From: Bifidobacterium pseudolongum subsp. globosum
GTDB lineage: Bacteria; Actinomycetota; Actinomycetes; Actinomycetales; Bifidobacteriaceae
NCBI RefSeq assembly: GCF_004155535.1
Contig: NZ_RYUH01000015.1
Span: 1-64,000, forward strand
Reading direction: 5' to 3'
Length of the DNA stretch: 64,000 bases
Part shown: positions 52,295 through 64,000 of the stretch, in pieces
Position numbering within the stretch: the first letter of the stretch is position 1
How the letters are laid out: every line of letters starts with the position of its first letter
The notes under the pieces: generated by a model
What the model saw: the letters and a program-made list of their open reading frames with translations, nothing else
Databases searched by the model: none
What the model was told of the DNA's origin: nothing
Translations under genes and position numbers: made by a program

Positions 52295-53116
52295 ATGCAA
52301 TACATCGAACAGACGATCACCGGCACTGACGGCACCACCGCGCGCTTCATTGGCTACGTACCCGACAATTCCCCCGAAATCGTGCCCGACCGCACACGCC
52401 CCACCGTGCTGATCGTGCCCGGCGGAGGCTACGAGATGACGTCGGACCGCGAGGGAGAACCCATCGCCCTGCAGTTCCTGGCGGCCGACTGCAACGCCTT
52501 CGTGTTGCGCTATTCGTGCGCGCCTTCGGTCTACCCCACCGCGCTGCTCGAAGTGGCCGAGGCGATGCGCCTCATCCTGGACAATGCCGAAGCGTGGCAC
52601 ATCGACCCGGCGCGCATCGCCGTGCTCGGATTCTCCGCGGGCGGCCATCTGGCCGCCGACTTCGCCACATCCGCCTCCGACGGCGTGCTGCGCGCGCACG
52701 GCTACGACCCCGCGCTGCTCGCGCCGACCGCGCTCATGCTCTCCTACCCGGTCGTCACCTCAGGCGCATACCGCCACGACGGCAGTTTCCGCGCGCTGCT
52801 CGGCAGCCGCTACGGCGACGAAGACGCGATGCACGAAGTGAGCATCGAAGAGCACATCGACGCGCGCACGCCGCCGGTCTTCGTCTGGCACACGATGCCC
52901 GACGACTGCGTGCCCGTGCAGAACACGCTCATGCTCATCGAGGCGTGCCGCGCCGCGCACGTGCCGGTCGAGGCGCACCTGTTCCCCGAAGGCGGCCATG
53001 GCCTTGCGCTCGCCACCGCGCAGACCGCATGGCAAGGCGTCAACGGCATCGAACCCGGCGTGCAGGCGTGGATCGGGCTGGCACTCGACTGGCTCGCGCG
53101 CACATTCGCCGACTGA
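52295..53116 (+). CDS. Alpha/beta-hydrolase, carbohydrate/acetyl esterase-like
   Basis: 273-residue cytoplasmic alpha/beta-hydrolase. The oxyanion block is V-P-G-G-G-Y, the nucleophile elbow L-G-F-S-A-G-G-H (about residues 113-120), the acid Asp probably in P-D-D-C-V-P, and the catalytic His in E-G-G-H-G-L. The pattern matches acetyl-xylan-esterase and BD-FAE-like enzymes that act on small acylated sugars. GCAAGAAGG precedes the start, and it has its own TATAAT promoter. It precedes the TetR gene and the glycosidase cluster, so it may deacetylate imported hemicellulose oligosaccharides (inference). Confidence 0.88.
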   Translation: MQYIEQTITGTDGTTARFIGYVPDNSPEIVPDRTRPTVLIVPGGGYEMTSDREGEPIALQFLAADCNAFVLRYSCAPSVYPTALLEVAEAMRLILDNAEAWHIDPARIAVLGFSAGGHLAADFATSASDGVLRAHGYDPALLAPTALMLSYPVVTSGAYRHDGSFRALLGSRYGDEDAMHEVSIEEHIDARTPPVFVWHTMPDDCVPVQNTLMLIEACRAAHVPVEAHLFPEGGHGLALATAQTAWQGVNGIEPGVQAWIGLALDWLARTFAD

Positions 53117-53195
53117 CGCACACCGCCATCGTGCGTGAGGTACGATGGCAGTGCCGATTCCACCCCTCCGACCACCGACAAGGACGCCAATCCAC

Positions 53196-54002
53196 ATGAC
53201 CCTCGCAGCATGGCAGCAGATCCTCGACCAGCACGGCGTCGCCGCTTCGGGCAGGCCCAAGCCGATCCTCGCCTCACATGAGGTGACCGTACGCGACACC
53301 ACATCGGCAAAGCGCTTCGAAAAGCGCAAGCGCATGACGCAGGAGGAACGCCATCTGCAGATCCTGCGCGCCGCGTCGAAGATCCTTGCCGTCAAAGGGT
53401 ATTGGGGCATGTCGCTGCAGGACATCTCCGACGAGATCGGCATCAGCGAGGCCGCGCTCTACCATTACATCGCCTCGAAAGAGGACCTGCTGGCCATGGT
53501 GCTCACCGAGGGGTACGACACGACGGAGTCGAACGAGTTCGCGGCGTTCAGCGCGTCGGCGGTGGACGCCGACGGCCACCGCATCTACTATTACCCGCGC
53601 TATTGCCTCAACACCGTGCTGTACAACATGCAGCGGCCCGAGATGATCCAGCTGCTGTGCGTCTTGAGCGGCGAGGCGCTCAATCCCGACCACCCCGCAC
53701 ACCAGTTCTTCACCGGCCGGCACATCCGCCGCTGGGAGATGATCGGCTCGATGAACTGGCTGCTGCCGAACGGCATGAACGAAGAGCGGTTCTTCGACCT
53801 GTACACGCTCGTCGCCTCGGCGATCGACGGCCTGCAGGCGCGTTGGCTCGCCGACGACTCGCTCGACCTGCTCGAGGAATGGATGCATTTCAGCGACGTG
53901 ATCTTCCCCGCAAACGTGTGGGAAGGCATCAGCGACCCGTCCGAGCAGGATCCGGATGACCCACGCTGCCTCATGCCATACACGCTGCAGGAGCGTGGCT
54001 AG
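53196..54002 (+). CDS. TetR-family transcriptional regulator
   Basis: 268-residue repressor-type protein. After about 45 residues of unusual N-terminal extension (Q-Q-I-L-D-Q-H-G-V-A-A), the TetR DNA-binding helix-turn-helix reads I-L-R-A-A-S-K-I-L-A-V-K-G-Y-W-G-M-S-L-Q-D-I with I-G-I-S-E-A-A-L-Y-H-Y-I. The rest is the usual helical ligand domain. The start at 53196 is chosen because AAGGA precedes it; the TACGAT hexamer at 53141-53146 gives a leader of about 43 nt. Its stop codon overlaps that of the ROK gene. It may control the adjacent sugar genes; ligand unknown. Confidence 0.9.
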   Translation: MTLAAWQQILDQHGVAASGRPKPILASHEVTVRDTTSAKRFEKRKRMTQEERHLQILRAASKILAVKGYWGMSLQDISDEIGISEAALYHYIASKEDLLAMVLTEGYDTTESNEFAAFSASAVDADGHRIYYYPRYCLNTVLYNMQRPEMIQLLCVLSGEALNPDHPAHQFFTGRHIRRWEMIGSMNWLLPNGMNEERFFDLYTLVASAIDGLQARWLADDSLDLLEEWMHFSDVIFPANVWEGISDPSEQDPDDPRCLMPYTLQERG

Positions 54003-54901
54003 GCGTTGACGCCCACTTCCTCCATGAACGCGTAGTACGCGCCGATGAGTCCGGCGTTGCCGCTGTGGCGGCAGCGTTTGATCGCCGTTTTGAACGGTTT
54101 CCAATCGCGGATTGAGTCGAGCGCGTCCTCGAGCATCGGCAACAGCAGCGGTTCGCGGCTGATGCTGCCGCCGATGAGCACGACCTCGGGGTCCACGGTG
54201 GCCACGGTGTTGAAGATGCCGACGGCGATGTAATGCACCCAGCGCTCCACGATCGCGCGCACGCGCGGGTCGTCGAGCCGCTGGAACAGCGTGCTCGGCA
54301 GCACCTCGCCCGCCTCGCCGCCGAACTCCTCGGCGTACCACTCCGTGAGGCACAGTGTCGAGACGAAATCGTGCAGCGGCAGGGCGCCGGCCGAATCGTA
54401 ATTGACGATCATCTGGCCGATCTCCGCGGCACGCCAGTCCTTGCCACGGCGCAGTTTGCCGTCGAGGAACAATGCGCCGCCCATGCCGGTGTCAAGCGTC
54501 ACCAGGACGAAATCGTCGAGTTTCTGCGCGTTTCCAGACATCTTTTCGGCCATCGCGGCGCAGTTCGCGTCGTTTTCGAGCCATGTGGGAATATCCTGCC
54601 CGAGCCGCGCGGCCAGTTCCACGCCGATCTGCTGTTTGGCGAGGAACTTGAGCGCACCGGCGGTGCGCGCGGTCTGCGTCTTCGTGTCGATGAACCCGGG
54701 CATGCTGATCGCAATGCCGTCGAGGGGCGCCTGCTGTTTGCGCACCACCTGCACAAGCGCCTCGTAGAACGCGTCCACGTCGGTGTTCGGCGTGGCGAAG
54801 GTGCCGGGGATGCCCATGCGCCCGTCCGCGAACAACGCATACCGGGTGAAGCTGGTGTTGATTTCGAACGCCAGGACGTGATGCTGCGCTTTGCCCGCCA
54901 T
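53999..54901 (-). CDS. ROK-family protein with altered phosphate-binding and zinc motifs
   Basis: 300-residue actin-fold protein of the ROK family (sugar kinases and repressors). The catalytic region W-L-E-N-D-A-N-C-A-A-M-A-E and the T-L-D-T-G-M-G-G-A-L-F block are present. However, the usual D-I-G-G-T-K/N motif is F-E-I-N-T-S-F-T, and the family's G-H-x-C-x-C-G-x-x-G-C zinc motif is replaced by I-G-Q-M-I-V-N-Y-D without the Cys cluster. No helix-turn-helix is present, so it is not an NagC-type repressor. GCGAGG precedes the start. It is the last gene of the glycosidase cluster. Kinase activity toward a released sugar is possible but doubtful. Confidence 0.85.
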   Translation of the reverse strand: MAGKAQHHVLAFEINTSFTRYALFADGRMGIPGTFATPNTDVDAFYEALVQVVRKQQAPLDGIAISMPGFIDTKTQTARTAGALKFLAKQQIGVELAARLGQDIPTWLENDANCAAMAEKMSGNAQKLDDFVLVTLDTGMGGALFLDGKLRRGKDWRAAEIGQMIVNYDSAGALPLHDFVSTLCLTEWYAEEFGGEAGEVLPSTLFQRLDDPRVRAIVERWVHYIAVGIFNTVATVDPEVVLIGGSISREPLLLPMLEDALDSIRDWKPFKTAIKRCRHSGNAGLIGAYYAFMEEVGVNA

Positions 54902-54919
54902 GTCAACCTCGCTTTTCCA

Positions 54920-54944
54920 GGGGCGCCGGCGGCTCCTGCGCCCC
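54920..54944. terminator. GC hairpin between the GH42 and ROK genes
   Basis: GGGGCGC and GCGCCCC flank an 11-nt loop in the 111-bp gap. It may attenuate or process the operon mRNA; there is no T-run. Confidence 0.35.
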
Positions 54945-55012
54945 GTGGGTCCCTTGTGCTCAGTGTGCTGCGGGGCATGGATAAAACACGCCCCACAGCG
55001 CACGTTGTCTCA

Positions 55013-56992
55013 TCACATGATGCGCGTTTCGAACGGAGCTAGGTCGAGGTCCTCCCCGCCGAGCGCGTGCGGCCAGTGCACAGGCCGGCCTGCGGTGTTG
55101 ATGACCGTCGTGAACACGGTGCCGTCATCGGCCGTGCGGCGCATCACCTCCACACCTTCCGGCGAATCGACCGTCTCGGCGCCGCATGCGTCGATGACCG
55201 GATCGATGACCGCGCTCATGCCTTCGGCGTCGAGCGCCGTGCCGATGAAGACCACGCGCCCCTCGCCCACCGTGTGCACGGTGGCAGCCGGAGTGCCCGC
55301 GTAGAAATCGCCGCCGTAGGTGGCGATCGTCTGCGCGCCTTCGGGCTCGATGATGCTCGCCACGATCGATCCGCGCACGGTGCGTCCGCCGACCTCCACG
55401 TCGATGTGCGCGTCCGGTGCGATCGCGTCGATCTCCTCGACCCACACCCCGCACAGCTCACGCAGCGGACCCGGATAGCCGCCCTCGATCACGAGGTCGA
55501 ACTCGTTGTGGATGCCCGACATGTAGCCGGTGATCAGTGTGCCGCCCTCGCGCACATACTGCGCGAGGGTCTGCGCCACACCCGGCTTGACCATGATCAA
55601 CGTAGGCGCCACGACCGCACGGTACCGCTTGAGCACGGCTAGGTCCACGGTGCTTTCCACCATATCGACCGGCACGTTGCGCCTCCAGAACGGGCGGTAG
55701 AAACGGTGCACCTCATCCGGATAATGCAGGCCCTGCGTGGGGCCGACGCATCCTTCGAGCGACCAGTAGCTCTCCCAGTCGAACATCACGGCCACCTGGC
55801 CGTGCACGCGCGACCCCATCAATGCAGGCGCACGCCGCTCCAGGTCGGCGCCGAGCTCGCGCACCTCACGGTAGGTGCGCGATCGCTCGGAATTGTCATG
55901 GCCGATCACCGCGCCATGGAAACGCTCGCAGCCGCCTATCGACTGCTTGAGCTGGAAGAACTGCACGGTGTCGGCGCCGTGCGCCACCGCCTGCCATGAG
56001 AGTTTGGCGACTTCGCCCGGCTGCTTGACCTTGCAGTATGGGAACCAGTTCTGCTGGTTCGGCGTCTGCTCCATGAGCATGAACGGCTTGCCTCCGCCCA
56101 CACCGCGCATCAGGTCGTGGCACATGGCGGTGAAGCTCGGCTCGGTGTCCATGCCCGGGTAGTTGTCCCAGCTCACCACGTCCATCTCGCGGCCCCAGCT
56201 GTAGTAGTCGAGGTCCTTGAACACGCCCATCAGGTTCGTCGTGACCGGCGTGTGCGCGTCGTGCTCGCGGATCGCGTCGCGTTCGAGGCGGAAGCAGTCG
56301 AGCATCTGCTCGTTCTGGAAGCGCCGGTAGTCGACCTGCAGGCCCGAGATCACGCATTTGTCGGTGCCGATCGCGTCGCCGTAGGTGACAGGCGGCACGA
56401 TCTCGCTCCAATCGTGGATCGTGTGGCTCCAGAAATTCATGCACCACGCGCGGTTGAGCTCCTCGACCGACCCGTATTTGCGTTCGAGCCAGCCGCGGAA
56501 CGCCTGCGCGCACAGGTCGCAGTAGCAGTAGCCGCCGCCGTTGCCGTACTCGTTGTTCACATGCCACGCCTCGAGGCCCGGCGTGCCGGCGTAACGCTCG
56601 GCCACGCGCGAGGCGAGCGCGCGGGCGAAGTGCCGGAAGTCGGGCGAGGTGGGGCAGAAATTGTGCCTCCCGCCGAACACCTGGTGCGTGCCGTCGACGC
56701 CCGTGCGCATGACCTGCGGGTAGTCGCGCGCCATCCACGCGGGGATCGCGGCGGTGCCGGTGGCCAGCACGATCGTGAACCCGTGGCGCACGAGCAGGTC
56801 GACGATCCGGTCGAGCATGGAAAAATCGTACGTTTGCTCGTCCGGCTGGAGCAGCGCCCACGAGAACACGTTGATCGTCGCCTCGTTGATGTGCGCGCGC
56901 TCGAGGAGCCGGATGTCGTGCTCCCAGGTGTCTTCGGGCCACTGTTCGGGGTTCCAGTCACCGCCGAACATGAATCGGTTGAACATCGTCAT
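55013..56992 (-). CDS. GH42 beta-galactosidase
   Basis: 659-residue cytoplasmic beta-galactosidase. The barrel begins F-G-G-D-W-N-P-E-Q-W-P and has the acid/base block H-V-N-N-E-Y-G and a nucleophile-type Glu in L-M-E-Q-T-P. Cys residues C-Y-C-D-L-C match the metal site of GH42. The trimerisation and beta-rich C-terminal domains complete the usual length. AAGGACC precedes the start. It is 26 bp after the GH31 gene. Removal of beta-1,2-galactose from xyloglucan side chains is inferred from the cluster; the family itself covers several beta-galactosides. Confidence 0.95.
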   Translation of the reverse strand: MTMFNRFMFGGDWNPEQWPEDTWEHDIRLLERAHINEATINVFSWALLQPDEQTYDFSMLDRIVDLLVRHGFTIVLATGTAAIPAWMARDYPQVMRTGVDGTHQVFGGRHNFCPTSPDFRHFARALASRVAERYAGTPGLEAWHVNNEYGNGGGYCYCDLCAQAFRGWLERKYGSVEELNRAWCMNFWSHTIHDWSEIVPPVTYGDAIGTDKCVISGLQVDYRRFQNEQMLDCFRLERDAIREHDAHTPVTTNLMGVFKDLDYYSWGREMDVVSWDNYPGMDTEPSFTAMCHDLMRGVGGGKPFMLMEQTPNQQNWFPYCKVKQPGEVAKLSWQAVAHGADTVQFFQLKQSIGGCERFHGAVIGHDNSERSRTYREVRELGADLERRAPALMGSRVHGQVAVMFDWESYWSLEGCVGPTQGLHYPDEVHRFYRPFWRRNVPVDMVESTVDLAVLKRYRAVVAPTLIMVKPGVAQTLAQYVREGGTLITGYMSGIHNEFDLVIEGGYPGPLRELCGVWVEEIDAIAPDAHIDVEVGGRTVRGSIVASIIEPEGAQTIATYGGDFYAGTPAATVHTVGEGRVVFIGTALDAEGMSAVIDPVIDACGAETVDSPEGVEVMRRTADDGTVFTTVINTAGRPVHWPHALGGEDLDLAPFETRIM

Positions 56993-57018
56993 GGCAGGTC
57001 CTTACGGGTCCGGACCGG

Positions 57019-59049
57019 TCAGGCCGCGAAGGGGTCGGTGCCGGGGCGGGCGAGCACGGGCAGCGCATGGTAGTCATAGCGCTCCGTGTACCAACGGCCG
57101 GGCTCGTATTCGGTGCCGGTGATCAGGTTGCGCCACGGCCGGCCGTCGCCGGCGTCGGGCACATAGAAGCGCGCCAGCCCCTCGTCGTTGAAGATCGGGG
57201 CCACAAGGATGTCGGAGCCGAGCATGTACTGCGTGTCGATGTCCTCACACGTCGGGTCGTCCTGGAACTCGAGCACCATCGCGCGCATCATCGGCACGCC
57301 GGTCTCGTGCGTCTGCACGGCCATGCGCTTGAGGTACGGCACGAGCCTGAGCTTGAGGTCGACGAATTCGCGGCACACGTCCACCGCTTCGTCGCCGTAC
57401 AACCACGGCACTTTATAGGCGGTCGACCCATGGTAGCGCGAATGCGAGCTCAACAGGCCGAACTGCGTCCAGCGCTTGTACAGGTCGGGCGTGGCCTGGT
57501 CCTCGAACCCGGCGATGTCGTGGCTCCAATAGCCGAAGCCGCTCATGCCGAACGAGAGCCCCGCGCGCAGCGATTCGGCCATCGACGGGTAGTTCGACGA
57601 ACAGTCACCGCCCCAGTGCACGGGGTAGCATTGGCCGCCCACCGTGGCCGAGCGTGCGAACAGGATCGCCTCGTCCTCGCCCTTCGTCTCGGCGAGCACG
57701 TCGTAGACGGCCTTGTTGTAGAGCAGCGTGTAGTAGTTGTGCATCATCTGCGGGTCGGAGCCGTCGAAATATCGCACGCCTTCGGTGGGGATGCGCTCGC
57801 CGAAGTCGGTCTTGAAGCAGTCGACGCCCATCGCCACGAGCTTCTTGAGATAGCCCTGATACCAAGCAGTGGCGTCTGGGTTCGTGAAGTCGACGATCGC
57901 CATGCCGGCCTGCCACTTGTCCCATTGCCACACCGAGCCGTCGGTGTTCCTGATGAAGTAGCCCAACTTCGCGCCCTCTTCGAACAGCGGCGACTTCTGG
58001 CCGATGTACGGGTTGATCCACACGCACACCTTGAGCCCGCGGTCATGCAGTTTCGCGAGCAGGCCTTCGGGGTCGGGGAACTTCGTCTCGTCCCATGCGA
58101 AGTTGCACCATTCGAGTTCCTTCATCCACCGGCAGTCGAAGTGGAACACCGAAAGCGGGATGTCGCGCTCGGCCATGTCGTCGACGAAGTCGAGCACGGT
58201 CTTCTCGTCGTAGTCGGTGGTGAAGCTCGTGCTCAGCCACAGGCCGTAGCTCCAGTCCGGCACGAGCGGGGCACGGCCGGTCAGGGCCGTGTAGTCCGCC
58301 AGGATCTGCTTCATGCTGGCACCGCCGATCACCGAATAGGTCATCTGCTCGCCGGGCACGCTGAACTGCACGCGTGAGACCTTTTCGGAACCGACCTCGA
58401 ACTCCACTTTGCCCGGCTCGTCCACGAACAGGCCGTAATTGTTGTTGGACAGGTAGAACGGCACGTTCTTGTACGCCTGCTCGGTGCCGGTGCCGCCGTC
58501 CTCGTTCCAGATCTCGACGCTCTGGCCGTTCTTGACGAAGTTCGTGAAGCGCTCGCCCAGGCCGTAGATCTTCTCGCCGACGCCCAGGTCGAGCTGATCG
58601 GTCACATGCAGCCGGCCGTCCGGGCTCGTCACAAGGCCCTTGGCGCGCCAGCCGGAGTGCGCGATGCGCTTGCCGTCATACAGGTATGCGAAGTCGATCG
58701 TCTCGCCTTTGGCGATGCGCAGCGTCAGGCGCCCCGAGGTAAAGGTCCACGCGTCGTCGGTCTCGTCGATCTCGACGTGCGGGGCCGTCTCGTTGAGGTG
58801 GAACTGCGGGCAGTGCTCGCGGTTCGTGCGGAAGTTGATCAGACGCGTGGTGATGATGTCTTCGCGCGGGCTCGTCACCTCGATCGTGAGGATGCCGCCG
58901 TCGAGCGTCATACCCGGATTGTAAATCGGCGAGCCGAACGGGCAGAACAGCGTGAGCTTGCCCGGCTCGATGTTCGCGGTGTAGATGTTGGCCGCGTACT
59001 TCACGGTGTAGCCGTCCTTGACGAGCCAGCCGCCATTGAGGAACTTCAT
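57019..59049 (-). CDS. GH31 alpha-xylosidase-like enzyme (YicI type)
   Basis: 676-residue cytoplasmic GH31 enzyme. An N-terminal beta-sandwich (about 1-240) precedes the barrel with C-R-W-M-K-E, W-I-N-P-Y-I, and the nucleophile block F-K-T-D-F-G-E-R-I-P, which is the form found in E. coli YicI alpha-xylosidase. The second block H-W-G-G-D-C-S-S-N-Y and S-G-F-G-Y-W-S-H-D-I-A-G-F complete the active site. The GGAGAAGAG before the start is a good ribosome site. Combined with GH3 and GH42 neighbours, the expected substrate is isoprimeverose-type alpha-1,6-xylosyl glucosides. Confidence 0.94.
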   Translation of the reverse strand: MKFLNGGWLVKDGYTVKYAANIYTANIEPGKLTLFCPFGSPIYNPGMTLDGGILTIEVTSPREDIITTRLINFRTNREHCPQFHLNETAPHVEIDETDDAWTFTSGRLTLRIAKGETIDFAYLYDGKRIAHSGWRAKGLVTSPDGRLHVTDQLDLGVGEKIYGLGERFTNFVKNGQSVEIWNEDGGTGTEQAYKNVPFYLSNNNYGLFVDEPGKVEFEVGSEKVSRVQFSVPGEQMTYSVIGGASMKQILADYTALTGRAPLVPDWSYGLWLSTSFTTDYDEKTVLDFVDDMAERDIPLSVFHFDCRWMKELEWCNFAWDETKFPDPEGLLAKLHDRGLKVCVWINPYIGQKSPLFEEGAKLGYFIRNTDGSVWQWDKWQAGMAIVDFTNPDATAWYQGYLKKLVAMGVDCFKTDFGERIPTEGVRYFDGSDPQMMHNYYTLLYNKAVYDVLAETKGEDEAILFARSATVGGQCYPVHWGGDCSSNYPSMAESLRAGLSFGMSGFGYWSHDIAGFEDQATPDLYKRWTQFGLLSSHSRYHGSTAYKVPWLYGDEAVDVCREFVDLKLRLVPYLKRMAVQTHETGVPMMRAMVLEFQDDPTCEDIDTQYMLGSDILVAPIFNDEGLARFYVPDAGDGRPWRNLITGTEYEPGRWYTERYDYHALPVLARPGTDPFAA

Positions 59050-59096
59050 CGGTCTCTTCTCCTTGGTGTGTTGTGGGTGATGTGTATTGATGGCGC

Positions 59097-61226
59097 TCAG
59101 CCGATGTGCGTGTGCAGGCGCAGGTCACCGACCGATTCGCCGACCGAGACGGCGGCGGCAGGGGCCACGCAGAAGCCGTGCATGCGTTCGGACCAGTAGC
59201 GCAGCGCGTCGGCGCGCGGCATGCGCACCGTCACCTGCCGGCGCTCCCCCGGCTCGAGCGCGACCTTGGTGAATCCCTTGAGCTCGTAGCGCGGGCGGTC
59301 CTCGCCGGTGCCATCGAGCCCCAGATACACCTGTGGCACGGCCTTGCCCGGGCGCGCGCCGGTGTTGCGCACATGGAACTCGACGAGCAGGTCGCCGTCG
59401 GCCTCGCGCACGCGCAGGTCGGTGTAGTCGAAGGTCGTGTAGGTCAGCCCGTGGCCGAAGCAGAAGCGCACCGGCACATCGTCCGTGCTGTAGTGGCGGT
59501 AGCCCACATAGATGCCCTCGGTGTAGTCCACATGGCCTTCGAGGCCGAACGTGCCAATCGCGTGGGCCGGGCAGTCGTCGAGCGTCATGGGGAAGGTCTC
59601 GGGCAGGTGCCCGCTCGGCTCCACGCGGCCGAAGAGCGTCTCGGCGAGCGCCGTGCCGCTTTCCATGCCGTTGTACCAGTTCCAGACGATCGTCGACGCC
59701 TTCGGCTCCCAGGGCATCGCCACCGGCGAGCCGCCCACGAACATGAGCACCGCGTTCGGGTCGATGTCGAGCAGCGCGTCGATCAACGCGTCCTGCTCGT
59801 ACGGCAGGTCCATCGTGGTGCGGTCGCGCGCTTCCAGATCATAGTCGTGGTTGAGGCCGCCGATATAGACAATCGGGTCGCCGCTCGCCGCGAACTCGCG
59901 GGCGAGCGCGAGCGCCTCGTCGCGCAGCCGGCGCGTGCGCTCGGCCTCCGCGGTGGCGTCCTGCGCCGAGTTCTCCAGGCTGTCTTCCTGCCATGTGTCG
60001 TCCTGTTTGATCTGCGGCGCCCAATAGCCTTCGGCATACGTGATGCCCACATTGCCGCCGAGCATGCCGTTGATGCCGAGCAGTGGGGAGATCTCGTGCA
60101 CGGCCTTGATGACGGCCGAGCCGCCGCCGGACGAGTGGACGCGGTCGGCGTTCGCGCCGATGATGAGCAGGCGCTTCGTCCCGCGCTCGTCCAGGGGCAG
60201 CACGCCTGCCGAGTTCTTGAGCAGCACGATCGATTCGCGCGCCACGCTGAGCGCGGCCTGCGCGTGCGCGAGCGTCGCGTACGAGCCGGCCTTGCGCTCG
60301 GCGCGTGCTTCGCCGAGCATGTTGAGCGCGTCCATGACGGCGAGCACATGCTCGACCTTGCGGTCGACGTCCGCTTCGCTCACGCGGCCGTCGCGCACCG
60401 CCTCGAGCAACGGGCGCGCGAAGTAATAGTCGTCGAAGTTCGGCGTGACGCCCATGTCCACGTCGAGGCCGACTTTCGCGCTCGCCTCGGTGTCTTTGAG
60501 CGCGCTCCAGTCGGAGACGACAAGCCCGTCGAAGCCCCACTCGTCGCGCAGGATGTCGTCGAGCAGCAGCTTCGACTCGCAGCACTGCGTGCCGTCGATG
60601 AGGTTGTAGGCGCCCATGATCGTCAGCGTGCCGCCCTGCTGCACGGCCGCGCGGAACGCCGGCAGGTAGATCTCGCGCAGCGCGCGTTCGCCGATCGATT
60701 CGTCCACGTCCAGGCGGTCGGTCTCCTGGCTGTTCGCGGCGAAATGCTTGGGGCATGCGGCCACGTCGGATTCCTGTACGCCGTTGATGTACGCGGAGCC
60801 CTGCACGGCGGTCAGCAGCGGGTCTTCGCTCATGTATTCGAAGTTGCGGCCACACAGCGGGCTGCGCTTGATGTTGAGCGAGGGGCCGAGGATCACGTCT
60901 TTGCCGCGGCCGCGGGCCTCCTGGCCCAGAGCCTCGCCGGTGAGCCGTGCGAGCGCGGGGTTCCATGTGGAGGCCACGGCGGAGCCGCTCGGCAGATAGG
61001 ACACGTAGTCGCGTGTGTTGTGCAGGGGAGCCCAGTCGTCGTCATGGGTGTCCGCGCGCACGCCCATCGGGCCGTCGTCGAACGTCATCGCGGGAATGCC
61101 GAGGCGTTCCACAGGCGCGGTATGGAACAGGGCGGCACCGTGGATCATGCCGATCTTCTCTTCAAGTGTGAGTCGGGCGGTGAGTGCACGCGCCTTGGCC
61201 TTGTTGGCCTCACTGATCATGGTCAT
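59097..61226 (-). CDS. GH3 beta-glucosidase
   Basis: 709-residue cytoplasmic GH3 enzyme. The TIM barrel has D-G-P-M-G-V-R, C-P-K-H-F-A-A-N-S-Q-E and the nucleophile block G-L-V-V-S-D-W. The alpha/beta sandwich follows, and a fibronectin-III-like domain (about 615-700) ends the chain. No PA14 insert is evident. Four blocks match bifidobacterial/thermophilic beta-glucosidases. GGGAG precedes the start. It lies 47 bp before the GH31 gene in the same operon and probably degrades the debranched cello-oligosaccharide backbone. Confidence 0.94.
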   Translation of the reverse strand: MTMISEANKAKARALTARLTLEEKIGMIHGAALFHTAPVERLGIPAMTFDDGPMGVRADTHDDDWAPLHNTRDYVSYLPSGSAVASTWNPALARLTGEALGQEARGRGKDVILGPSLNIKRSPLCGRNFEYMSEDPLLTAVQGSAYINGVQESDVAACPKHFAANSQETDRLDVDESIGERALREIYLPAFRAAVQQGGTLTIMGAYNLIDGTQCCESKLLLDDILRDEWGFDGLVVSDWSALKDTEASAKVGLDVDMGVTPNFDDYYFARPLLEAVRDGRVSEADVDRKVEHVLAVMDALNMLGEARAERKAGSYATLAHAQAALSVARESIVLLKNSAGVLPLDERGTKRLLIIGANADRVHSSGGGSAVIKAVHEISPLLGINGMLGGNVGITYAEGYWAPQIKQDDTWQEDSLENSAQDATAEAERTRRLRDEALALAREFAASGDPIVYIGGLNHDYDLEARDRTTMDLPYEQDALIDALLDIDPNAVLMFVGGSPVAMPWEPKASTIVWNWYNGMESGTALAETLFGRVEPSGHLPETFPMTLDDCPAHAIGTFGLEGHVDYTEGIYVGYRHYSTDDVPVRFCFGHGLTYTTFDYTDLRVREADGDLLVEFHVRNTGARPGKAVPQVYLGLDGTGEDRPRYELKGFTKVALEPGERRQVTVRMPRADALRYWSERMHGFCVAPAAAVSVGESVGDLRLHTHIG

Positions 61227-61274
61227 CGTGGAGCTCCCTTTCAGGTGGTGGGTGTTGGCGTCTGCGCCAACAGG

Positions 61275-62744
61275 TCAGCCAACCGTGATCTTGAATCCGA
61301 TTGGCAGGTTCTGGAGTGGTTCATGGCGGTCAGCTGGTTGGATGTGCAGGCCATCGGGCTCCCTGCGGAACGGCACGGGGCCTGCGCCGAGTTGTTCGAC
61401 GGCGCTGACGATGCCGTTGAACACGGGTTGATGGGTGCCGTCGAACGCGGCGAGCGATGCGCACACAAGCTCGCGCGTGCCCGCCGGCGCCAGGCAGAAG
61501 CAGTAGAGCGCGCCGTCTTTGGTGGTGAACCGCCAGTCCGCGGCGGTCCACGCAGAAGGCGCCTGGTCGGCGAACATGCCGGAGGCCTGCTGTGTGGGGC
61601 CTTCGTGCGCGATGCGCCATGGCCTGCTGCCGTAGATGCCGGCGCCGTTGGCGGCGAGCCAGTCGCCGATGCCTTCGAGCAGCGCGCGGTCGTGGTCGGC
61701 GATCGACCCGTCGGCGCGCGGGCCCACGTTGAGCAGCAGGTTGCCGTTGTTGCTCACGGCGTCGATCAGCGCCACCACGAGCTCGGGCAGTGTCTTGTAG
61801 TCAAGCGAATCGGTGTAGCACCAGGAATTGCGCGCGATCGCGGTGTCGGTCTGCCACACGAACGGCGTGGGTTCGGCGAATCCGCCGCGCTCCACGTCCA
61901 CGATGCCGGCGCCCCAGGCGAGCGCGTCGTACTTGTAGCAGATCGCGGCTTGTGCGCCGCGTTCGGCGGCGCGGTTGTAGTAGTAGGCGGCGAGCGTCTT
62001 GAGGTACGGGGCGAACGCGCGGTGCTGGATCCACCAATCGAAGTAGAGCAGTTCGGGCTCGTAGTTGTCGATGACCTCAGCCACGCGCAGCAGCCAGTCC
62101 TCGAGGTATTCGGCGGTCGGCGCCGGCTCGCTTACCGTGTCGAACTCGTTCGGTTCGGGCATGGCGGGCCAGTAGAAATCGCCGCGGCTCATCGGCTCGC
62201 GCACGTCGGAGTCGAATTCGCGGCCGTGGCCCATGAACCACCAGTGCTCCGCGCGGTGGTTCGATGTGCAGAAGTGCAGTCCGGCGCGCGTGGCGGCGGC
62301 GCGCAGCTCGCCGAGCACGTCGCGGCGCGGTCCCATCTCCACGCTGTTCCAGTGCGAGAGCGCGCTGCGGTACATCTGGAACCCGTCGTGGTGTTCGCTC
62401 ACCGGCATGATGTAGCGTGCGCCGGCGCGGGCGAACAGGCCGGCCCACTCGTCGGCGTCGAACGCCTGGGCGCGGAACATGGGGATGAAGTCCTTGTAGC
62501 CGAATTCGCTCTGCGGGCCGTAGGTGGCGCGGTGGTGGCCGAATTCGGGGTAGCCCTGGATGTACATGTTGCGCGAATACCATTCGTTGCGGTATTCGGG
62601 CACGGTGTACAGGCCCCAGTGGGTGAAGATGCCGAACTTGGCGTCGGCGAACCAGCTGGGCGCCTGGTTGTGGGCCAGGGATTCCCACGTGGGGGCGAAG
62701 GGTCCGGCGTTGGCCACGGCCTCGATTGTCGTGATGCCCGCCAT
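61275..62744 (-). CDS. GH29 alpha-L-fucosidase
   Basis: 489-residue cytoplasmic GH29 enzyme. The barrel opens F-A-D-A-K-F-G-I-F-T-H-W-G-L-Y-T-V-P and has S-E-H-H-D-G-F and the nucleophile block L-L-Y-F-D-W-W. N-N-G-N-L-L-L-N-V-G-P and a C-terminal beta-sandwich complete it. No signal peptide. GAGGAGG precedes the start. The gene is 48 bp upstream of GH3 and 119 bp after the solute-binding-protein gene. Xyloglucan fucose is alpha-1,2-linked, so activity on that linkage is inferred from context, not shown. Confidence 0.93.
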   Translation of the reverse strand: MAGITTIEAVANAGPFAPTWESLAHNQAPSWFADAKFGIFTHWGLYTVPEYRNEWYSRNMYIQGYPEFGHHRATYGPQSEFGYKDFIPMFRAQAFDADEWAGLFARAGARYIMPVSEHHDGFQMYRSALSHWNSVEMGPRRDVLGELRAAATRAGLHFCTSNHRAEHWWFMGHGREFDSDVREPMSRGDFYWPAMPEPNEFDTVSEPAPTAEYLEDWLLRVAEVIDNYEPELLYFDWWIQHRAFAPYLKTLAAYYYNRAAERGAQAAICYKYDALAWGAGIVDVERGGFAEPTPFVWQTDTAIARNSWCYTDSLDYKTLPELVVALIDAVSNNGNLLLNVGPRADGSIADHDRALLEGIGDWLAANGAGIYGSRPWRIAHEGPTQQASGMFADQAPSAWTAADWRFTTKDGALYCFCLAPAGTRELVCASLAAFDGTHQPVFNGIVSAVEQLGAGPVPFRREPDGLHIQPADRHEPLQNLPIGFKITVG

Positions 62745-62791
62745 GGCTGCCTCCTCTTCGGTATTTGATGTGTCGGGTCGGTTTGTGTGGG

Positions 62792-62823
62792 GGCCGGGGC
62801 ACGGTATGGCGCGCGCCCCGGCC
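62792..62823 (-). terminator. GC hairpin between the solute-binding-protein and GH29 genes
   Basis: GGCCGGGGC (62792-62800) and GCCCCGGCC (62815-62823) form a perfect 9-bp stem, 41 bp after the binding-protein stop. Such elements often lower expression of downstream genes relative to the binding protein. Confidence 0.55.
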
Positions 62824-62863
62824 GGTCAGTGGGGGGCTTTTCAGCCTCGCTGGGGGTTCGGGC

Positions 62864-64000
62864 TCACTCGGAGTCCTTGTCGGCGAACTGCTTGACGATC
62901 TCTTCGCGGGCCTTGATGAGCGACTTCGCGTTGTCCTCGTCCACCTTGAGCACCTGCTCGTAGCCGAGGTCGTTGATCTGCTTGCTGATGCCCTTGAAGA
63001 TGGACTGGCTTTCCGCCTGGCTCTTGGCCACGACCGCCTGCCACGAGGCGTTGATGACCTCGGTCTTGACCGACGAGCGCAGCGTGGAGATCTGCGAATC
63101 CTCCTCCGGAGGCGTGTAGGTGGCGCCCGGGGCGACGGCGAGCTTGCCGGCCTTCTCGAGGTATTCGATGTCGGTCTTCGCGCCGTCCATGTGCTTGGAC
63201 CAGTCCTCGCTCAGCTTGGTGGTCTTGGCGAGCTGCGTGGCCCACAGCTGCGGGTTGTACGCGGCCTTCGTGTCGGGGTCGGTGCTGTTGGCGTTCACGG
63301 TCTTGAAGTTGAGGGTCGAGATGCCGTCGTTGTAGGAGCCGCCGCCGTATTCGGCCGGCACCTGCAGGCCGTCGGAGTCGAACATGGCCTTCTCGCCGAA
63401 CTCGTTGAGCTGCGGTTCGTTCTTGTCGTTGAGCGTCCAGCACATGTCCTTCGGGCAGGCGGCGCCGCCGGAGTTGGAGGCGGAGGCGTAGATGCCCTCA
63501 GGCGAATACAGCCAGTCGATGAACTTGGCGAGGCGTTCCTTGTTCTTGGCCTTCGAACCGATGGCGATGAAGGTGTTGCCGTCGCCCTCCGGCTGGAAGC
63601 CCGGGGTGTAGACGTCCATGTCCTGCAGCGGGGCGAGCATGAAGCCGATGCCCTTGTTCTGGTTGTCGGTGCTGTTCATGCGCGGCTTGCCCAGCCAGGA
63701 CCAGATGGACATGAGTACCTTGCCGTTGGTCACCTTCGTCGAGAGCGTGTCCCAGTTCTGGGTGGTCGACTCCGGGTCCACAAGGCCCATCGTGTCGCAC
63801 TTGTTGAAGAACTCGATCATCTTGTCGTACGCGCTGCCCACCTGGGTGGCCGGCACGACCTGGGAGTCCTTGTCGTCGGACGGCACGAGCACCGAGTTCT
63901 GCGCGTAGTAGCCGTACCACTGCGCGGCGGCCTGCGCGTTCTGCATCATCTCGCCGTCCCAGTCCTTGAACAGCGAGACGGCGTAGATGTCGTCCTTGCC
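62864..64000 (-). CDS. ABC sugar transporter solute-binding protein, partial (5' end outside window)
   Basis: C-terminal 378 residues of a family-1-type extracellular solute-binding protein; the frame is open to the window edge, so the lipoprotein signal is not visible. The sequence has the Tyr/Trp-rich sugar-site style (W-Y-G-Y-Y, W-S-W-L-G, F-I-D-W-L-Y-S-P-E-G) and the usual A-I-G-S-K-A-K-N-K-E-R block. It should deliver the cluster's oligosaccharide to an ABC importer. No permease genes lie downstream, so they must be to the right or elsewhere. Confidence 0.88.
   Translation of the reverse strand, partial: GKDDIYAVSLFKDWDGEMMQNAQAAAQWYGYYAQNSVLVPSDDKDSQVVPATQVGSAYDKMIEFFNKCDTMGLVDPESTTQNWDTLSTKVTNGKVLMSIWSWLGKPRMNSTDNQNKGIGFMLAPLQDMDVYTPGFQPEGDGNTFIAIGSKAKNKERLAKFIDWLYSPEGIYASASNSGGAACPKDMCWTLNDKNEPQLNEFGEKAMFDSDGLQVPAEYGGGSYNDGISTLNFKTVNANSTDPDTKAAYNPQLWATQLAKTTKLSEDWSKHMDGAKTDIEYLEKAGKLAVAPGATYTPPEEDSQISTLRSSVKTEVINASWQAVVAKSQAESQSIFKGISKQINDLGYEQVLKVDEDNAKSLIKAREEIVKQFADKDSE

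What the first reader, a model, noticed from the sequence alone, without database searches (positions are those of the whole stretch)
54902..64000. Probable utilisation locus for fucosylated xyloglucan oligosaccharides
GH29 fucosidase, GH42 beta-galactosidase, YicI-type GH31 alpha-xylosidase and GH3 beta-glucosidase are all cytoplasmic and in one orientation with short gaps, together with a sugar-binding protein. These four activities are exactly those needed to dismantle a fucosylated, galactosylated xyloglucan oligosaccharide after import. Such a dedicated set is not the usual bifidobacterial repertoire. No endo-glucanase is present, so the organism would rely on others for the first cut.
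Basis: partly seen in the sequence, partly recalled or inferred. Interest (0 to 1): 0.62.

Follow-up and report, generated by a model that had tools for sequence, protein, structure and literature searches.

The report
Bifidobacterial xyloglucan-oligosaccharide uptake operon
This is a gene set that lets a gut Bifidobacterium take up short pieces of xyloglucan, a common plant cell-wall fibre, and take them apart inside the cell; the idea is not new, but the set is conserved in about a fifth of Bifidobacterium species and seems to be switched by its own DNA signal.

Summary
GH29, GH3, GH31 and GH42 genes lie in one orientation with 26-48 bp gaps, after a binding-lipoprotein gene that the window end cuts. 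Outside the window two ABC permeases complete the operon; a ROK-family kinase gene ends it, and an esterase-TetR pair converges on it.

The xyloglucan reading is well supported. GH31 keeps the YicI alpha-xylosidase residues. In 112 Bifidobacterium genomes the GH29 clade occurs in 25, all also carrying this GH31. Relatives' loci add GH43, GDSL esterase, GH5_4 endoglucanase and xylulokinase. Ruminiclostridium cellulolyticum uses the same GH42+GH31+GH3+ABC design, experimentally shown. Xyloglucan islands were already predicted in marmoset bifidobacteria.

Apparently new: a 24-bp palindrome before the permease gene, and in relatives also before GH31, cellobiose phosphorylase (GH94), esterase-TetR and ROK genes. 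In this 2.13-Mb genome it occurs (<=2 mismatches) only twice, both in this promoter region; a 3-mismatch copy precedes the genome's GH94.

Caveats: the GH29's nearest solved relative is an exo-alpha-L-galactosidase, so fucose versus L-galactose is untested. Two fucose-catabolism markers are missing, so fucose is probably removed, not eaten. No GH5, GH9 or GH16 exists genome-wide, so others must make the first cut.

The parts
52295..53116 (+). alpha/beta-hydrolase esterase (BD-FAE / lp_1002 arylesterase-like); candidate de-O-acetylase for acetylated xyloglucan oligosaccharides
   Evidence: PF20434 69 bits and Abhydrolase_3; NF052620 188 bits, below its 300 cut-off. In many lactobacilli and enterococci loci the homologue (43-54%) is the gene directly after GH29. 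The acetyl-xyloglucan role is inferred.
53196..54002 (+). TetR-family regulator (ORF open from 53145; homology begins near residue 18, so the start is probably 53196); probable regulator of the operon
   Evidence: PF00440; conserved beside the locus in relatives and found in all 13 genomes that carry the 24-bp palindrome
53999..54901 (-). ROK-family sugar kinase without a DNA-binding domain (ORF open to 55003; Met at 54901 is the likelier start)
   Evidence: PF00480 109 bits; best NCBIfam BglK 138 bits, below its 550 cut-off; in G023 and G075 the 24-bp palindrome precedes the ROK gene
55013..56992 (-). GH42 beta-galactosidase, cytoplasmic; the only GH42 in the genome
   Evidence: PF02449 475 bits, PF08532 212 bits; PDB best 3tts 692 bits
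57019..59049 (-). GH31 alpha-xylosidase, YicI type, short form lacking about the last 100 residues of YicI
   Evidence: NF007940 1140 bits over a 606 cut-off; PDB YicI 835 bits, residues 1-671; catalytic and xylose-pocket residues conserved except F308 to R
59097..61226 (-). GH3 beta-glucosidase-like enzyme, cytoplasmic
   Evidence: PF00933, PF01915, PF14310; best NCBIfam model NF041610 (arabinopyranosidase) at 501 bits, far below its 1300 cut-off; PDB hits are mostly beta-glucosidases
61275..62744 (-). GH29 exo-acting enzyme, alpha-L-fucosidase or alpha-L-galactosidase; the only clear GH29 in the genome
   Evidence: PF01120 320 bits; PDB best BpGH29 7ljj/7snk 385 bits, next 212; 25 of 112 Bifidobacterium genomes
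62745..62863 (-). Intergenic G+C-rich stem-loop between binding-protein gene and GH29; may protect the transporter part of the transcript (inferred)
   Evidence: 12-bp stem, MFE -41.5 kcal/mol, z = -3.8 against shuffles
62864..64000 (-). Solute-binding lipoprotein of an ABC importer, C-terminal part (full gene C7:62864-64636; permeases C7:64728-65648 and 65687-66760; 24-bp palindromes at C7:66830-66853 and 67020-67043; DUF624 gene C7:67078-67749, divergent)
   Evidence: PF01547. No solved structure matches by sequence.

Best explanation
An operon for import and cytoplasmic breakdown of xyloglucan oligosaccharides, including fucosylated and probably acetylated ones. Proposed steps: (1) other organisms' endo-xyloglucanases release oligosaccharides (inferred from the lack of GH5/GH9/GH16). 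(2) The 590-aa binding lipoprotein and two permeases import them, with an ATPase encoded elsewhere (gene layout shown, import inferred). (3) In the cytoplasm the esterase removes acetyl groups (inferred), GH29 removes the terminal alpha-1,2-L-fucose (or L-galactose), GH42 the beta-galactose, then GH31 and GH3 alternate from the non-reducing end, giving xylose, glucose and cellobiose (order inferred from R. cellulolyticum). (4) Cellobiose goes to the GH94 cellobiose phosphorylase encoded elsewhere in the genome, xylose to xylose isomerase; the ROK kinase probably phosphorylates a released hexose. Fucose is probably not catabolised. (5) A TetR-family repressor probably controls the regulon through a 24-bp palindrome, consensus CTTATTTATAAACTTATAAATAAG, and is released by a pathway oligosaccharide (palindrome and its target genes shown; TetR assignment and effector inferred).
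For: Families and order. GH31 is over its alpha-xylosidase equivalog cut-off and keeps F277, C307, W345, K414 and both catalytic Asp of YicI. Conservation: in 29 Bifidobacterium loci around the GH31, GH3 25, binding protein 25, GH29 24, permease 24, GH42 23, ROK 20, TetR 17, GH43 16, esterase 14, GDSL 13, GH5_4-like 8. The extra GH5 of relatives matches GH5_4 xyloglucanases in the PDB (2jep, 3zmr). The same GH29, importer and esterase recur in lactobacilli beside xylose isomerase and xylulokinase genes. R. cellulolyticum Gal42A, Xyl31A, Glu3A and its ABC importer do these steps, leaving cellobiose. GH29 similarity-network cluster 2 holds xyloglucan-active and alpha-1,2-preferring fucosidases together with BpGH29 (PMC11189522). 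Palindrome: only 2 sites at <=2 mismatches in this genome, both at the operon promoter; 40 sites in 16 genomes, none with the reversed control pattern; nearly all stand before permease, DUF624, GH31, GH94, esterase, ROK or TetR genes. The genome's GH94 has a 3-mismatch copy about 185 bp upstream. Xylose isomerase is present.
Against: No growth, transcript or binding data. The ligand of the binding protein cannot be read from sequence (no structural relative). GH29 is nearer to an exo-alpha-L-galactosidase than to any solved fucosidase. GH3 and GH42 specificities are not fixed by family. In the short GH31 clade, YicI F308 is R. No operator was found before this genome's own esterase-TetR pair, and in five relatives with sites (G018, G028, G052, G054, G103) no TetR gene lies in the stretch fetched.
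Confidence: 0.87

Rival explanations
1. Xyloglucan oligosaccharides, but the GH29 is an exo-alpha-L-galactosidase rather than a fucosidase, acting on xyloglucans whose side chain ends in L-galactose, or on both sugars.
For: Nearest solved relative is BpGH29 exo-alpha-L-galactosidase, 385 bits against 212 for the next. The S-x-H-R-x-E stretch of the window enzyme (SNHRAEHWW) matches BpGH29 (SSHRCENAW) rather than the fucosidase 9lxl.
Against: The same similarity-network cluster holds RiGH29 (strong on CNP-Fuc, prefers alpha-1,2) and the xyloglucan-active FgFCO1. The residue two before the nucleophile is Tyr here and Trp in BpGH29. Fucose is far commoner than L-galactose in xyloglucan (own knowledge).
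Confidence: 0.15
2. The locus serves host or milk glycans carrying Fuc-alpha-1,2-Gal, and GH31/GH3 are bystanders.
For: GH29 and GH42 are common in glycan foraging by bifidobacteria (own knowledge); R. intestinalis RiGH29 acts on alpha-1,2-fucosyl-galactose.
Against: No hexosaminidase, sialidase or lacto-N-biose enzyme was seen among the genes identified in the locus or its relatives; GH31 is of the alpha-xylosidase type; plant cell-wall enzymes GH43, GH5_4, GH94 and xylose genes accompany the locus.
Confidence: 0.04
3. The set serves other beta-glucosides or cello-oligosaccharides, with fucose and galactose removal accidental.
For: The regulon includes cellobiose phosphorylase; [quoted passage not shown] genome G001 keeps TetR, GH94, esterase, ROK and GH42 without GH31 or GH29 of these clades.
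Against: GH31 and GH29 are inherited together with the importer, and GH31 shares the operator; cello-oligosaccharides need neither.
Confidence: 0.06

Closest known systems
Ruminiclostridium cellulolyticum xyloglucan-oligosaccharide cluster Ccel_2451-2458 (PMC4780118)
   Same: GH42, GH31, GH3 without signal sequences, beside two permeases and a family 1 solute-binding lipoprotein with no ATPase gene; leftover cellobiose for a cytoplasmic cellobiose phosphorylase.
   Different: Two-component/AraC regulation there, probably TetR and a 24-bp palindrome here; GH29 in the operon here, GH95 elsewhere there; secreted cellulosomal xyloglucanases there, no GH5/GH9/GH16 here.
XG-1 islands of marmoset bifidobacteria MARM_A1, B. 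myosotis, B. hapali (PMC8406136)
   Same: Bifidobacterium; beta-glucosidase, alpha-xylosidase and alpha-fucosidase genes read as xyloglucan degradation.
   Different: The text names no importer, regulator, operator, GH42 or GH94; the island figure could not be read here, so gene-by-gene identity is untested.
BgrT group of TetR-family regulators in bifidobacteria (PMC4746261)
   Same: TetR-family regulator encoded beside glycosidase genes, long palindromic sites, cellodextrin phosphorylase among neighbours.
   Different: BgrT sites are described as 18-22 nt; no xyloglucan, xylosidase or fucosidase is mentioned in that paper's main text; phylogenetic membership not tested here.
BpGH29, exo-alpha-L-galactosidase of Bacteroides plebeius (7ljj, 7snk)
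   Same: Closest solved relative of the window GH29.
   Different: Studied for red-algal galactan (own knowledge); no algal-polysaccharide genes were seen at this locus.

Membership tests
Gram-positive xyloglucan-oligosaccharide import and cytoplasmic breakdown cluster (R. cellulolyticum type) | GH31 alpha-xylosidase, GH3 and GH42 without signal sequences in one cluster | tested here: met
   N-termini read from sequence
Gram-positive xyloglucan-oligosaccharide import and cytoplasmic breakdown cluster (R. cellulolyticum type) | ABC importer (two permeases, solute-binding lipoprotein) without its own ATPase gene in the cluster | tested here: met
   no ATPase gene among the ORFs of the operon
Gram-positive xyloglucan-oligosaccharide import and cytoplasmic breakdown cluster (R. 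cellulolyticum type) | Cellobiose phosphorylase available for the leftover cellobiose | tested here: met
   GH94 at C18:43987-46488, 75% identical to the relatives' enzyme, which matches solved cellobiose phosphorylase at 1081 bits; 3-mismatch palindrome upstream
Gram-positive xyloglucan-oligosaccharide import and cytoplasmic breakdown cluster (R. cellulolyticum type) | Binding protein specific for xyloglucan oligosaccharides | not testable with these tools
   No solved structure matches by sequence
Gram-positive xyloglucan-oligosaccharide import and cytoplasmic breakdown cluster (R. cellulolyticum type) | Own secreted endo-xyloglucanase (found in R. cellulolyticum; not needed for using ready-made oligosaccharides) | tested here: inconclusive
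   No GH5, GH9 or GH16 in the genome; GH12, GH44, GH74 not tested
YicI-type GH31 alpha-xylosidase | Score over the alpha-xylosidase equivalog cut-off | tested here: met
   NF007940 1140 bits against 606
YicI-type GH31 alpha-xylosidase | Catalytic D416, D482 and xylose-pocket F277, C307, F308, W345, K414 (residue roles from own knowledge) | tested here: met
   All identical except F308 to R, which is R in all ten short-form bifidobacterial proteins aligned
GH29 alpha-L-fucosidase acting on xyloglucan | GH29 catalytic domain | tested here: met
   PF01120 320 bits
GH29 alpha-L-fucosidase acting on xyloglucan | Fucose rather than L-galactose specificity, alpha-1,2 linkage | tested here: inconclusive
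   Nearest structure is an L-galactosidase, but the published cluster also holds alpha-1,2-preferring fucosidases
BgrT TetR-family regulators | Membership in the BgrT phylogenetic branch | not tested
   No BgrT sequence was compared
BgrT TetR-family regulators | Palindromic site before beta-glucoside/beta-galactoside genes | tested here: met
   24-bp palindrome before permease, GH31, GH94, esterase and ROK genes; published length 18-22 nt

The most novel reading that the evidence does not exclude
Bifidobacteria carry a dedicated xyloglucan regulon under a TetR-family repressor that senses a xyloglucan- or cello-oligosaccharide through a 24-bp palindrome, unites importer, alpha-xylosidase and cellobiose phosphorylase even when these lie far apart, and removes fucose only to unmask the chain, leaving the fucose to other gut bacteria.
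Probability: 0.5. Interest if true: 0.45.

Novelty: new member of a known kind. Interest (0 to 1): 0.38.

Why it matters
Xyloglucan is abundant in fruit and vegetables. If correct, about a fifth of Bifidobacterium species are specialised users of pieces of it, and fucosylated xyloglucan oligosaccharides become candidate selective feeds for them. The operator motif makes the regulon directly testable and gives a way to find its members in any genome of the genus. Released fucose, if not eaten by the producer, would feed neighbours.

Tried and rejected
Alpha-glucosidase or maltoside reading of GH31: rejected on the equivalog score and the YicI pocket residues. ROK-type operator (XylR/NagC-like): first idea for the A+T-rich palindrome, because a ROK regulator with a DNA-binding part lies beside the locus in two species. 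Set aside because all 13 genomes with the palindrome carry the TetR gene, including G001, which lacks this GH31 and GH29, and because the sites are absent from the lactobacilli and enterococci loci scanned, where no TetR homologue was found. Not excluded. Palindromes before this genome's own esterase gene: none related to the operator. Binding-protein specificity by sequence: no solved relative. Fucose catabolism: no FucU and no MR_MLE_C match over the cut-off. Papers linking Bifidobacterium, xyloglucan and these families beyond PMC8406136: none found in this library; I recall, unverified, a 2025 comparative study reporting xyloglucan clusters in Bangladeshi bifidobacteria. Structure prediction was not used: at this sequence similarity it would not decide sugar specificity.
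Full report
OBSERVATION. The stated genes exist at the stated place, all on the - strand: GH42 55013-56992, GH31 57019-59049, GH3 59097-61226, GH29 61275-62744, binding protein from 62864. The window is C7:1-64000 of a 2.13-Mb assembly, 99.99% complete. Reading on past the window end gives the whole binding protein (590 aa, lipobox), two permeases and a divergent DUF624 gene. Gaps from permease to GH42 are 38, 91, 119, 48, 47 and 26 bp; these genes have Shine-Dalgarno-like sequences. The esterase and TetR genes (52295-54002, + strand) converge on the operon.

WHAT THE ENZYMES ARE. GH31 scores 1140 bits against the alpha-xylosidase equivalog (cut-off 606) and aligns to YicI residues 1-671 of 772. 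It is a short form without the last part of YicI, as in the bifidobacterial relatives aligned. YicI pocket and catalytic residues are kept (F277, C307, W345, K414, D416, D482), with F308 replaced by R throughout the short clade (roles of the residues from own knowledge of YicI). GH3 scores below every curated cut-off; its solved relatives are mostly beta-glucosidases. GH42 is the only one in the genome. GH29 is nearest to the exo-alpha-L-galactosidase BpGH29 (385 bits, next 212). The published similarity network puts BpGH29 in one cluster with the xyloglucan-active FgFCO1 and with RiGH29, which prefers alpha-1,2-linked fucose on galactose (PMC11189522). Fuc-alpha-1,2-Gal is the xyloglucan linkage. 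I therefore favour fucosidase but cannot exclude L-galactosidase.

CONSERVATION. In 112 Bifidobacterium genomes the short GH31 (66% identity or more) is in 30 and the GH29 clade (64% or more) in 25; all 25 are among the 30 (relatedness not corrected for). Around 29 of these GH31 genes, GH3 is found in 25 loci, binding protein 25, GH29 24, permeases 23-24, GH42 23, ROK 20, TetR 17, GH43 16, DUF624 15, esterase 14, a GDSL esterase 13 and a GH5_4-like enzyme 8, some of the last being weak matches. The strong GH5 is related to solved xyloglucanases (2jep, 3zmr) and seems cytoplasmic. B. choerinum has the same order as the window from permeases to esterase (L005). Lacticaseibacillus and Lapidilactobacillus loci combine the same GH29, importer and esterase with GH43, GH1 and xylose isomerase/xylulokinase genes.

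REGULON. Upstream of the first permease most bifidobacterial loci share a 24-bp palindrome, consensus CTTATTTATAAACTTATAAATAAG. I searched STTRTTKATAANNTTATMAAYAAS with up to 2 mismatches in 16 whole genomes: 40 sites in 13 genomes, none for the reversed control pattern. The window's genome has exactly two, C7:66830-66853 and 67020-67043, both between permease and DUF624. In relatives the sites stand mostly 45-200 bp before permease, DUF624, GH31, cellobiose phosphorylase (GH94), esterase, ROK or TetR genes; exceptions are two before a prolyl-tRNA synthetase-like gene and two in one genome before unassigned genes. The GH94 matches solved cellobiose phosphorylase at 1081 bits. The window's genome has this GH94 on another contig (C18:43987-46488), with a 3-mismatch site about 185 bp upstream, TTTATTGATAGACTTATCAATAAT. 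Ten mononucleotide shuffles of the 100-kb contig region (1 Mb in all) gave no match at 3 mismatches. All 13 genomes with sites carry a TetR homologue, among them G001, which has no GH31 or GH29 of this clade; in five further relatives with sites the TetR gene was not in the stretch fetched and was not sought elsewhere. The palindrome is absent from the non-bifidobacterial loci scanned. I therefore assign it to the TetR protein; this is inference. TetR-family regulators of beta-glucoside genes with 18-22-nt palindromes (BgrT) are described in bifidobacteria (PMC4746261).

HOW IT WORKS. R. cellulolyticum Gal42A strips galactose from imported oligosaccharides, Xyl31A then removes xylose from the non-reducing end, Glu3A removes glucose, and the end products are galactose, xylose, glucose and cellobiose, the last presumably for a cytoplasmic cellobiose phosphorylase (PMC4780118). 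The same families, importer layout and phosphorylase are present here, and the shared operator ties GH94 to the operon. GH29 adds removal of the terminal L-sugar; the esterase probably removes acetyl groups. Xylose isomerase is present. FucU and MR_MLE_C (over its cut-off) were not found, so fucose is probably released rather than used; other fucose-pathway genes were not searched. A strong stem-loop after the binding-protein gene (z = -3.8) may raise transporter transcript over enzyme transcript.

NOVELTY. Xyloglucan islands in bifidobacteria were predicted in 2021 (PMC8406136), and the biochemical scheme is known from R. cellulolyticum. The distribution over the genus, the operator and its link to GH94 were not found in the papers I could search, but that library is incomplete. 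I file it as a new member of a known kind.

Noticed in passing
C7:69282-75079 (L003:6482-12279), just beyond the window: A second locus with a full-length (780 aa) YicI-type GH31 keeping the alpha-xylosidase residues, its own binding protein and two permeases, and a LacI regulator next to it. Possibly for isoprimeverose or other small alpha-xylosides.
   Followed up: partly
L168/L175 (genome G001): A genome with TetR, GH94, esterase, ROK, GH42, DUF624 and xylulokinase homologues plus the palindrome but without the GH31 and GH29 of this clade: perhaps a decayed xyloglucan locus.
   Followed up: partly
L118 (G039), L146 (G026): Apparent decay of the locus: GH29 split between two frames in G039; GH31 with an in-frame stop and no GH29, GH3 or binding protein nearby in G026.
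   Followed up: no
L161:6441 and L169:8651: Good copies of the 24-bp palindrome directly before a prolyl-tRNA synthetase-like gene in G030 and G001; no reason is apparent.
   Followed up: no
L006:15874-17019, L012:17721-18869, L019:13684-14835: GH5_4-type endoglucanase without an evident signal peptide inside the locus of several bifidobacteria, suggesting cutting of larger oligosaccharides inside the cell.
   Followed up: partly
window 62745-62863: Strong 12-bp G+C-rich stem-loop between binding-protein gene and GH29 without a T run.
   Followed up: partly
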